Assembly (NCBI RefSeq): GCF_965638725.1
Contig: NC_134953.1
Coordinates: 37,562,854-37,626,853 of the forward strand
Reading direction: 5' to 3'
DNA: 64,000 nucleotides
From: Aptenodytes patagonicus
Lineage: Eukaryota; Chordata; Aves; Sphenisciformes; Spheniscidae
Every line of letters begins with the position of its first letter. The first letter of the stretch is position 1. The notes under the pieces were generated by a model. It made no database searches, was not told the origin of the DNA, and saw only the letters and a list, made by a program, of their open reading frames with translations. Position numbers and translations under genes: made by a program. Below, piece after piece: positions 53,354 to 56,300 of this stretch.

Positions 53354-56300
53354 GTAGCAAGTTAAGGAAGTAGGTCTCAAGCATTTTGATAACGTATCGC
53401 TTTCACAAAAACACAAAACCTGTTTGAATATGTATCAGTGTTTACAAAGAAAGCAGCTAATGAGGCCTTTCCTATTTAAATTGGAGGTGGAAACAGCCAT
53501 AACTAGATCAAACTCTGTACAGGGCCAGAGAAAAAGAAAAAATTAACAAGTCATCTGAAAGTTATACCATTTTCCATTCTAGCAACGCTACTCATGAACC
53601 ATTCTCTCACCAGATGTGTTTAAATGCATGGTACTTCTGAGGAAAACAATCACACTGACATTAAGATGCCAAGCAACTAGGATGATCACAGAAAAAAATG
53701 CAAAAGTATTAAACATTAAAAATTCTGGCCTCAAAATTAAAAAATTATGTCAAAGTTGACTTGCAAATCAGCATGGACTTTTTCTACTTCTGAAGACAGT
53801 GAAGGTTCTAAATCCATCTATTAGCTTGAGCTCAAGTATATTTTCGGCATATTTAATTAGCACATTTTGTACCATGTTGCCAGTGTTAAGAGTATAACCT
53901 AAATAGTCAAAGATCTTCCCATCCTTATCTCAAATCTCAGTAAGTCAATCTTACCTTTCCCCTTTCACAAAACAGCATGGAGAAAAAGGATATCATTGCC
54001 TCAGACTGCAAATGGCAGAGTAGCTTCTCTAAAGGAGAATAGCGACACAGGGATGGAACACAGCCCACCATGATTAGTTTGTGCTTGGCTCTTGTGATAG
54101 CAACATTAAGACGTCGCCAGTCCTTCAGGAGGGTGCCAAGCTGTTAAATAAAACGTAACTTGCTTTTATTTTTCCTACTTAAATTTCAGAATTTAATGTA
54201 GATAGACGTATTTTGAAAATGAGTGTTTTAACTATTAAAATTGACTGAAAGTTAACATGACCAACTTACATTTTCATCATTACTGTTCCTAACAAAAGAT
54301 ACAATTATGATACTTTTGTCTCTTCCTTGGTATTTGTCTACTGTGTTGACTTCCACTCTGTTCTCCTTCAATTTTGCCATCAAATCAGTAATTGTTTTTA
54401 ATTGATGTCTGTATGGCGATATAATGCCAATGTCTGAAGGCTTACAGCCGGCCTGAATGAAAAGAAGAAAAAAAAATTGTCACTGCAGTTAGCTTGGGAT
54501 ACTCATTACTGTCAGAAGACCCTCAAGGATTTTTTTTTTTTTTTTTTTTTTAAAACAGTGCTGCAAGATACTGTATCTATACTAAGTTGTCAGTGGAACT
54601 CTAGGTATAACTGGTATTAACTAAATAAAACAGTGCTTTGTCTTAGCCATGCACAAAGGCAGATATCCTTGAAATCCTCATTTTTCTTTCTTCCTCAAAC
54701 TGTGAGGTGAACATTCAGAACTCCTAGTCTGTACTACTCCTGAAATTAACTGGATGAAATAAGGAAGAAAGGAAAATCCTCTCCCCTCCCTCACAAGAAA
54801 GTCTTCATCTCTTAAAAGAATTTGGCATCCGGCTTTTTTTGCACCCCAAATCCAACTCGGCAGGGGACAGGGAACTGAATGCAGACCTCAAGTTCCTCAC
54901 TGTACTGACATATAGCCAACTTTCAATTTATCCTTAAGGTTATCCGTCAAAGAATAACCCAATGCATATAGTCACCATTACTATAGCAATGTAAAAATGA
55001 TTAATTATAAAGCTGTCCCTCCAAACAATGTAATAAAGTAAAAGATACCTTAATAAATAAGGATGTGAGGAAGAGTACTAGTTTAGCTTCTGTCACATTA
55101 CTTACACCACCTTTTTCTGCATGTTCTGGTGCTGGGACCTTTAAAAATATAAACGGAAAATAATGACTTTTGCTGTCTATAATAGCATGCTATATTCTGA
55201 TCCCTAAATCACCGTATTATACGTGGTTTTATAGTAACAGTCTTAATAAAAAAAATAAGGCTAAATGCTAAATTTTACAGAGTATAAGAGCCTATACTGT
55301 AAAGTAACTTCAGAATACTGCATTTGCAAAACAAGTTGAAACAATTTACTGAAATGAGTTTCTAGTACTAACAAGTCACCTTTAGAAATGGCCAAAGCCT
55401 GGTCATCTGACTTTACAGTTCACACGATACATATCATATGAAAAAAAAAAAAAAATTGACATTTCCCAGCTTGACAAGGTAAGAGAGCAAACTATATTTT
55501 ACATGGGACTTTTGTTTTAAGGCTTTCCATACAATGATGTTTAAAGTGAATTTTCCCCATTTCCATGGCAGAAAGGATTTTTTTTCTTAAAGTTTGAAAG
55601 CCCATATTTAAAACTACAGGAAGAACTATGCAAAATGGTAGTATTAAATTTAACTTCCAAATTTAAAAAAAAAAAGTATTTACTGAATTTACCATTTCTT
55701 AACTATTAACTCCCTTTCCCTGCATCATGTATGAATGAGACCAAAAAGTCAGGAACAAGCTTAGAATGTAAACTCTTATCATTTCAGTATCACAGTTTTA
55801 TAATTTATTCTCTTTGCTTAGCTCTTGCCTTCTCTACAGTTTAAGTAGTATTATTAGCAATAAATTTGTCCCTTCAGTGAATTTGTTATCCTTCTAGTAA
55901 ACTGGCATGCAGCTAAACATCTGGGGTCAAGAAACAAACCTCTTTATTTAAAAAGAGTCCAAAACTGAGCATACACTAAACTGCTTTCCGGCTCTGAATT
56001 CCATTTACTGCCTTACTTATTTACTGCCATTTATTACTTTACCTATTCCACTATTTGCCTCTGATACTAGTGACATACATCAACTTTGTTTTCTTAGATG
56101 CCACTTTGTTCAGTTTTCCTTCTAAATCTTTATTACAGCATTGCCACTTAAAATGGGAGGTGGTATAGTCTGACTTAAAGCAACACTCTCAGAATCCTAT
56201 CACAACTAGTTTTACTTCTCCGAACAACCACCCCAATATCATCTGAATGGCTGAATCTGGAGATAACTATAATGTTTAACATGAGGGTAAAGTAATACAT

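What the first reader, a model, noticed from the sequence alone, without database searches (positions are those of the whole stretch)
53354..53993. Last DNA2 intron is a minor-spliceosome AT-AC intron
Seen: minus-strand exon end GCAATG is followed by ATATCCTTT, an exact U12 AT-AC 5' splice site. TTCCTTAAC, an exact U12 branch site, sits 8-9 nt before a terminal AC at 53354. The flanking exons join in phase 0 to give [17 protein letters not shown], matching human SEKLIIDLPSREHES. No AG acceptor exists at that point, so a GT-AG rule would lose the true C-terminus and stop codon. Inference: maturation of DNA2, a replication-stress nuclease/helicase, would depend on U11/U12 splicing.
Basis: partly seen in the sequence, partly recalled or inferred. 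Interest (0 to 1): 0.8.

Follow-up and report, generated by a model that had tools for sequence, protein, structure and literature searches.

The report
Conserved minor-spliceosome intron ending DNA2
The last intron of this bird's DNA2 gene, which encodes a DNA-repair enzyme, carries the rare AT-AC signals of the minor splicing machinery and is likely removed by it, apparently as in other vertebrates back to sharks; a minor-class intron was already catalogued in DNA2, so it is an ordinary member of a known class that gene annotations often get wrong.

Summary
On the minus strand the exon end GCAATG is followed by ATATCCTTT (53993), an exact U12 branch site TTCCTTAAC lies at 53369-53361, and AC ends a 640-nt phase-0 intron at 53354. 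The eight other DNA2 introns modelled in the window are GT-AG. The joined peptide aligns without a gap to mouse DNA2. Of 320 DNA2-like proteins examined, 215 join at this exact place; 96 run on into the intron reading I-S-F (ATH TCN TTY) and then diverge, from sharks to birds and mammals; 6 enter from the 3' side through SL(T/A)CY; 3 are other. Ten proteins from short, probably RNA-derived contigs all show the exact join. The same genome holds U11, U12, U4atac and U6atac, and its U11 and U12 can pair with the sites. Retention would replace the last 18 residues by another 18, not truncate the helicase. A 2023 review says that U12DB lists a U12-type intron in DNA2. Additions here: position, subtype, an age reaching jawed vertebrates, and widespread mis-annotation.

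The parts
53994..54140 (-). DNA2 penultimate coding exon (exon 9 of the 10 modelled in the window), ends GCAATG, phase 0
   Evidence: gene model; aligns to mouse DNA2 PDB chains
53354..53993 (-). last DNA2 intron, U12-type AT-AC, 640 nt, phase 0
   Evidence: comparative
53985..53993 (-). U12-type 5' splice site ATATCCTTT (+1 to +9); U11 complementarity runs +4 to +11
53361..53369 (-). U12-type branch site TTCCTTAAC (candidate branch adenines 53363 and 53362)
53354..53355 (-). 3' terminal AC of the intron
53297..53353 (-). last coding exon: [18 protein letters not shown] and stop TGA
   Evidence: aligned across the junction to mouse DNA2, 55.6 bits without and 68.8 bits with this exon
53953..53954 (-). 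competing GT (GGAAAG|GTAAGA), a U2-type-like donor inside the intron
53967..53968 (-). GT (TGTTTT|GTGAAAGG) that with AG 53338 gives an in-frame GT-AG model keeping the stop
53335..53339 (-). tandem AG acceptors (AGCAG, bases 15-19 of exon 10) that forced GT-AG models could use
53937..53939 (-). in-frame stop reached if the intron is retained (tail [18 protein letters not shown], 18 residues)
54141..63591 (-). eight further DNA2 helicase-half exons (63591-63483, 62176-62067, 61062-60838, 59645-59452, 59339-59250, 59157-58965, 55138-55049, 54452-54270) separated from each other and from exon 9 by eight GT-AG introns
   Evidence: 765.9 bits to mouse DNA2; AAA_11 and AAA_12. The 5' edge of the first exon was not resolved

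Best explanation
The last intron of DNA2 in this window carries an exact U12-type AT-AC 5' splice site, branch site and 3' end, and is predicted to be removed by the minor spliceosome, joining the helicase body to an 18-residue C-terminal exon. Shown: the sites, the phase-0 join, homology on both sides of the join, and the same join in DNA2 proteins from sharks to mammals. Also shown: the 96 annotated proteins that read straight on into the intron read I-S-F first and then diverge, and the same genome holds U11, U12, U4atac and U6atac genes, of which U11 and U12 can pair with the sites. Inferred: that U11 and U12 recognise this intron in the bird, that U6atac replaces U11 at the 5' site, and that, as an A-type intron, it would depend on CENATAC. 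Inferred: if the minor spliceosome is limiting, the intron would be retained or spliced from cryptic GT-AG sites, which would replace the last residues of DNA2 without an exon junction downstream of the new stop, so that junction-dependent decay would probably not act.
For: Exact sites and coordinates; joint chance about 1.6e-9. Nine introns in the gene model, eight GT-AG and this one AT-AC. Ungapped match to mouse DNA2 across the junction, score rising from 55.6 to 68.8 bits, whole model 765.9 bits. Of 320 proteins examined, 215 join exactly here (class set by the first five residues after the exon-9 end); 96 begin ISF, with the fourth residue then free (F 48, L 21, T 11, C 6, S 5, and P, K, H, I once each, one protein ending there) and 57 distinct first-eight-residue strings; 6 enter from the 3' end through SL(T/A)CY; 3 others. 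Isoleucine codons are ATN, so those introns begin with AT, not GT; no protein reads on from exon 9 with a valine (GT) codon followed by intron. 10 of 10 proteins from source 'lgn', on contigs of 1,720 to 5,728 bases, join exactly; such short contigs with long unbroken DNA2 frames are most simply spliced RNA (inference). Own-genome hits over the Rfam or Pfam cut-off: U6atac 134.4 bits, U12 148.7, U11 67.5, U4atac 83.5, CENATAC family PF14968, three pieces. U11 5' end AAAAAGGG pairs 8 contiguous nt with +4 to +11, against 4 to 6 in the other eight introns; U12 GTAAGGAA fits TTCCTT-A-AC with a bulged A. Print: U12DB lists a U12-type intron in DNA2 (PMC10676203, passages); 92% of A-type minor introns respond to CENATAC loss (PMC8280824, passages).
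Against: Branch-to-3' distance is 8-9 nt, shorter than the reported optimum of 11-13 nt (PMC3584512). Phase 0 is the rarer phase for minor introns, about 22% on average (PMC10639083). A U2-type-like donor (GTAAGA, 53954) and tandem AG acceptors lie nearby. The U6atac pairing is not discriminating: intron 1 gave a longer run (9 nt) and intron 7 a 7-nt run, elsewhere in U6atac. No bird RNA reads were available. In one egret protein the 3' leak reads SLACY, which fits a changed branch site (P0063). Two proteins, P0137 and P0196, carry one extra isoleucine at the join that I cannot explain. Evidence in other species is at protein level and cannot fix every base; the second search used a query containing ISFFSMLF and so favoured leaks, though the first and third did not. 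The 96 leaks come from related species and clusters, so they are not independent.
Confidence: 0.95

Rival explanations
1. The intron is a U2-type intron with GT-AG ends: donor 53968 or 53954 and acceptor at TTCCAG 53338 or CAG 53335, so the exon is 25 or 39 nt longer and the AT-AC motifs are accidental.
For: A good donor (AAAG|GTAAGA) and a pyrimidine-rich AG acceptor exist. 15 of 120 proteins in the first set read into the intron and, by a loose pattern, resume in exon 10, several as ISFF..FSGAHE.
Against: 215 of 320 proteins, among them placental, fish and shark ones, join exactly at the AT-AC ends, and mouse DNA2 aligns without an insertion there. 10 of 10 proteins from short contigs do so. 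The extension after ISF is not conserved (57 distinct strings). Conservation limited to the nine bases of a U12 donor is not expected of coding exon.
Confidence: 0.03
2. It is an AT-AC intron spliced by the major (U2-type) spliceosome.
For: 85 major AT-AC introns or related subtypes were examined in human cells (PMC8280824, passages), so the end dinucleotides alone do not decide.
Against: The 5' site ATATCCTTT and branch site TTCCTTAAC are exact U12-type sites, and U11 pairing is longest for this intron among the nine. Major AT-AC introns have ATAAG-like donors (recalled, from no call).
Confidence: 0.02
3. The locus is a DNA2 pseudogene or a decayed copy in which splice sites do not matter.
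For: None found.
Against: Ten exons give an open 465-codon frame and eight of the nine introns are GT-AG; 454 of 465 residues are identical to the stork protein P0002.
Confidence: 0.01

Closest known systems
U12-type intron of DNA2 listed in U12DB (cited in PMC10676203)
   Same: Same gene and same intron class; most likely the same, orthologous intron.
   Different: The passages that I read give neither the intron number nor the AT-AC or GT-AG subtype; here both are stated and shown in a bird, with the join traced from sharks to mammals.
A-type (AT-AN) minor introns dependent on CENATAC (PMC8280824)
   Same: AT-AC ends, exact U12 donor and branch site; such introns respond to CENATAC loss by retention or cryptic major sites, and candidate cryptic GT-AG sites exist here.
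   Different: Dependence was not tested here; DNA2 has 0 occurrences in that paper's searched text (listing) and supplements could not be read.
Major-class AT-AC introns
   Same: Same terminal dinucleotides.
   Different: Donor and branch site here are U12-type.

Membership tests
U12-type (minor) intron, AT-AC subtype | 5' splice site ATATCCTT(T) | tested here: met
   exact at 53993-53985
U12-type (minor) intron, AT-AC subtype | branch site TTCCTTRAY close to the 3' end | tested here: met
   TTCCTTAAC at 53369-53361, adenines 9 and 8 nt before the intron end
U12-type (minor) intron, AT-AC subtype | branch-to-3' splice site distance, optimum 11-13 nt | tested here: inconclusive
   8-9 nt, short of the optimum given in PMC3584512
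U12-type (minor) intron, AT-AC subtype | AT and AC termini with reading frame and homology preserved | tested here: met
   phase 0 join, aligned to mouse DNA2; 215 of 320 proteins join here
U12-type (minor) intron, AT-AC subtype | no distinct polypyrimidine tract before the 3' splice site | tested here: met
   by eye: GCTTGAGACCTACTTCCTTAACTTGCTAC against T-rich ends of most of the other introns
U12-type (minor) intron, AT-AC subtype | minor snRNAs present and able to pair with the sites | tested here: met
   U11, U12, U4atac, U6atac in the same genome; U11 and U12 pairing; U6atac pairing not discriminating
U12-type (minor) intron, AT-AC subtype | actually spliced by the minor spliceosome | not testable with these tools
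   needs RNA from minor-spliceosome knock-down
CENATAC-dependent A-type minor intron | AT-AN ends | tested here: met
CENATAC-dependent A-type minor intron | retention or cryptic splicing on CENATAC loss | not testable with these tools
   pieces of a CENATAC-family gene are in the genome; dependence not measured
Major-class (U2-type) AT-AC intron | U2-type donor context and polypyrimidine tract | tested here: not met
   donor is ATATCCTTT and no tract precedes the AC; the expected ATAAG-like donor is recalled

The most novel reading that the evidence does not exclude
The last DNA2 intron is a minor-spliceosome-controlled switch kept since early jawed vertebrates: when minor splicing is low, retention or cryptic GT-AG use swaps the conserved C-terminal residues of DNA2 for another short tail without triggering junction-dependent mRNA decay, tying replication-stress repair to minor-spliceosome capacity and adding a DNA2 defect to minor spliceosome diseases such as the dwarfism caused by U4atac mutations.
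Probability: 0.15. Interest if true: 0.65.

Novelty: already known. Interest (0 to 1): 0.3.

Why it matters
DNA2 is on the list of Seckel syndrome genes (PMC11596399, passages) and of genes for a Rothmund-Thomson-like syndrome (PMC10676203, passages); U4atac defects cause another primordial dwarfism, and CRIPT, which stabilises U12 snRNP, is also a Rothmund-Thomson gene. A defined, testable A-type minor intron at the end of DNA2 gives these links a concrete readout. It also flags a practical problem: 105 of the 320 DNA2-like proteins examined do not show the exact join (the second search favoured such cases), so the C-terminal residues are missing or altered in many database entries.

Tried and rejected
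A structure model of the stork protein P0002 with an 18-row alignment was too poor to use (mean pLDDT 42), so whether the last 18 residues are ordered stays open; no fold search was run on it. The 12 passages of the mouse Dna2 structure paper that I saw (PMC4716839) say nothing on the C-terminal tail. Rfam found nothing above its gathering scores in the window. Genome-wide counts of ATATCCTTT were not informative. U6atac pairing run length did not separate this intron from the others. Intron 7 (donor GTATCTTTT at 55048) resembles a U12 donor but has a T-rich 3' end and no TTCCTTRAY there, so it was left as U2-type. Among papers whose passages I read, only PMC10676203 states a U12-type intron in DNA2, and none gives its position or subtype. 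Not every listed paper was opened: one search listed 40 of 144, and seven of the eight papers and PMC7277822 were seen as listings only. PMC11187153 (passages) reports DNA2 among genes raised after transfection of U12 or U6atac snRNA, which may be indirect.

Full report
What was checked. The window's minus strand at 54140-53994 holds a DNA2 exon ending GCAATG; the next bases are ATATCCTTT (53993-53985). An exact U12 branch site TTCCTTAAC lies at 53369-53361 and AC at 53355-53354, followed by ATCTTCAATCTTCCAGCAGGGGCTCATGAAAGT..., which in phase 0 reads [18 protein letters not shown] and stop. The intron is 640 nt. All coordinates in the finding are right.

Chance. Simulated windows with the same dinucleotide make-up hold about one ATATCCTTT and one TTCCTTAAC on both strands together (the real window holds four and two); the joint probability of finding both where homology puts the exon ends is about 1.6e-9 by the simulated rates. 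The 9-mer by itself means nothing: 10,239 and 10,233 copies on the two strands of the 1.35-Gb genome against 9,809 and 10,029 for the reversed pattern.

Gene model. Ten DNA2 exons were placed between 63591 and 53297; the nine introns are eight GT-AG and one AT-AC. The 465-residue product matches mouse DNA2 chains in the PDB at 765.9 bits, collinear to near the C-terminus (query residues 2-460), carries AAA_11 and AAA_12 domains, and is identical at 454 of 465 positions to the stork protein P0002, the best-scoring of the 213 proteins then held. The last exon adds 13.2 bits to the mouse match (55.6 to 68.8), with [15 protein letters not shown] against AEQL|ILDLPSREHES.

Comparison. Three searches of the protein collection gave 912, 431 and 286 matches, of which 120 each were listed, 320 distinct proteins in all. 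They were classed by the residues after the exon-9 end: 215 join exactly at the AT-AC ends (76, 58 and 81 by search, each protein counted where first seen); 96 begin ISF, that is, they run on into the intron (38, 32 and 26); 6 enter exon 10 from the intron's 3' end and read SL(T/A)CY before IF; 3 are other. The ISF class is defined by those letters, so the test is what is left over: none of the nine remaining proteins reads on from exon 9 into some different intron start. Of the three others, the bat P0153 reads CVKYIFLNLFY before ITDLP, in which FLN..Y fits TTC CTT AAC ... TAY, the same branch site in another frame (my reading); P0137 and P0196 carry one extra isoleucine, unexplained. I-S-F is what ATA TCC TTT encodes, and an isoleucine codon forces AT, not GT, at the intron start. 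After these three codons the leaks diverge at once: nine different fourth residues and one protein that ends there, and 57 distinct first-eight-residue strings. So conservation stops where a U12 donor stops. The leaks come from birds, turtles, lizards, many placental mammals (among them chimpanzee and bonobo), a frog, gar, bowfin, paddlefish, many teleosts and two sharks, Heptranchias P0280 and Heterodontus P0315 (names; tails). SLTCY is what TCC TTA ACT TGC TAC encodes, so the branch site and AC leave a trace in six bird proteins; in the egret P0063 it reads SLACY. The second search's query contained ISFFSMLF and so favoured leaks; the first and third did not. Protein traces cannot fix third codon positions.

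RNA-level hint. Ten listed proteins come from source 'lgn' on contigs of 1,720 to 5,728 bases. Unbroken DNA2 frames of 428 to 1,478 residues on such short contigs are most simply assembled RNA. All ten join exactly at this place and none leaks. They are not bird sequences as far as their tails show. That the source is RNA is my inference.

Machinery. The same genome holds U6atac (134.4 bits, cut-off 33), U12 (148.7, cut-off 53), U11 (67.5, cut-off 39), U4atac (83.5, cut-off 53) and pieces of the CENATAC family PF14968. Its U11 5' end AAAAAGGG can pair with intron bases +4 to +11 over 8 contiguous positions including one G-U; the other eight DNA2 introns reach 4 to 6. The stretch compared was 40 bases, 27 of them flank upstream of the U11 match. 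Its U12 element GTAAGGAA fits TTCCTT-A-AC with one bulged adenine. Its U6atac AAAGGA fits TCCTTT, but run length with U6atac does not discriminate.

A GT-AG model need not lose the C-terminus: donor 53968 (TTTT|GTGAAAGG) to the AG at 53338 gives ...[25 protein letters not shown] and the normal stop, and annotated proteins such as P0025, P0029 and P0077 look like this. Donor 53954 gives instead a 13-residue extension and a shifted tail. Of the first 120 proteins, 44 lack the exact join; by hand count these are 25 of 38 rows without an NCBI source and 19 of 82 rows with one.

Likely mechanism. Established for minor introns (passages of named papers): either adenine of the branch site can be used, and the optimum distance is 11-13 nt (PMC3584512); A-type introns are spliced less efficiently and 92% respond to CENATAC loss by retention or use of alternative major sites (PMC8280824). 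Here the distance is 8-9 nt, and candidate major-type sites are present at both ends. If retained, the frame reaches a stop at 53939-53937 after [18 protein letters not shown], 18 residues, the same number as the normal last exon. Since this is the last coding intron and no intron was modelled in the 3' UTR, probably no exon junction would lie downstream of that stop, so junction-dependent decay would probably not act (established rule, recalled). The helicase body stays intact, so the loss would be of the tail, whose role I could not determine.

Known or new. A 2023 review states that U12DB lists a U12-type intron in DNA2 and suggests that CRIPT promotes DNA2 splicing (PMC10676203, passages). 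The intron class, the gene and the idea are therefore known; position, subtype, age and the annotation failure are what this adds. None of the passages that I read gives position or subtype; the searches are listed under Tried and rejected.

Noticed in passing
window 25334-23784 and 26652-25918, minus strand: A LINE with a 517-codon reverse transcriptase frame (PF00078) and an endonuclease piece (PF03372, PF14529) upstream of it, probably a CR1 element (the name is from recall).
   Followed up: partly
window 9800-11200 and 49400-50600: Two GC-rich islands with overlapping open frames and no Pfam match in the three frames tested there, possibly promoters. Fusion models P0225 (kiwi) and P0278 (amazon parrot) join DNA2 to extra C-terminal sequence and carry PF02759 (P0278 also PF01363), so the downstream neighbour is probably RUFY2 (gene name from recall).
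   Followed up: partly
window 55048, minus strand: DNA2 intron 7 begins GTATCTTTT, one base from a GT-type U12 donor, but ends with a T-rich tract and AG; it may be a look-alike or a converted minor intron.
   Followed up: partly
P0063 (Egretta garzetta): The 3' leak reads SLACY instead of SLTCY, which suggests a change at the second branch-site adenine in the little egret; could be real or an assembly error.
   Followed up: no
proteins P0035-P0038, P0097, P0106, P0107: Several annotated DNA2 proteins carry a mitochondrial carrier domain (PF00153), some named SLC25A16, pointing to read-through models between neighbouring genes.
   Followed up: no
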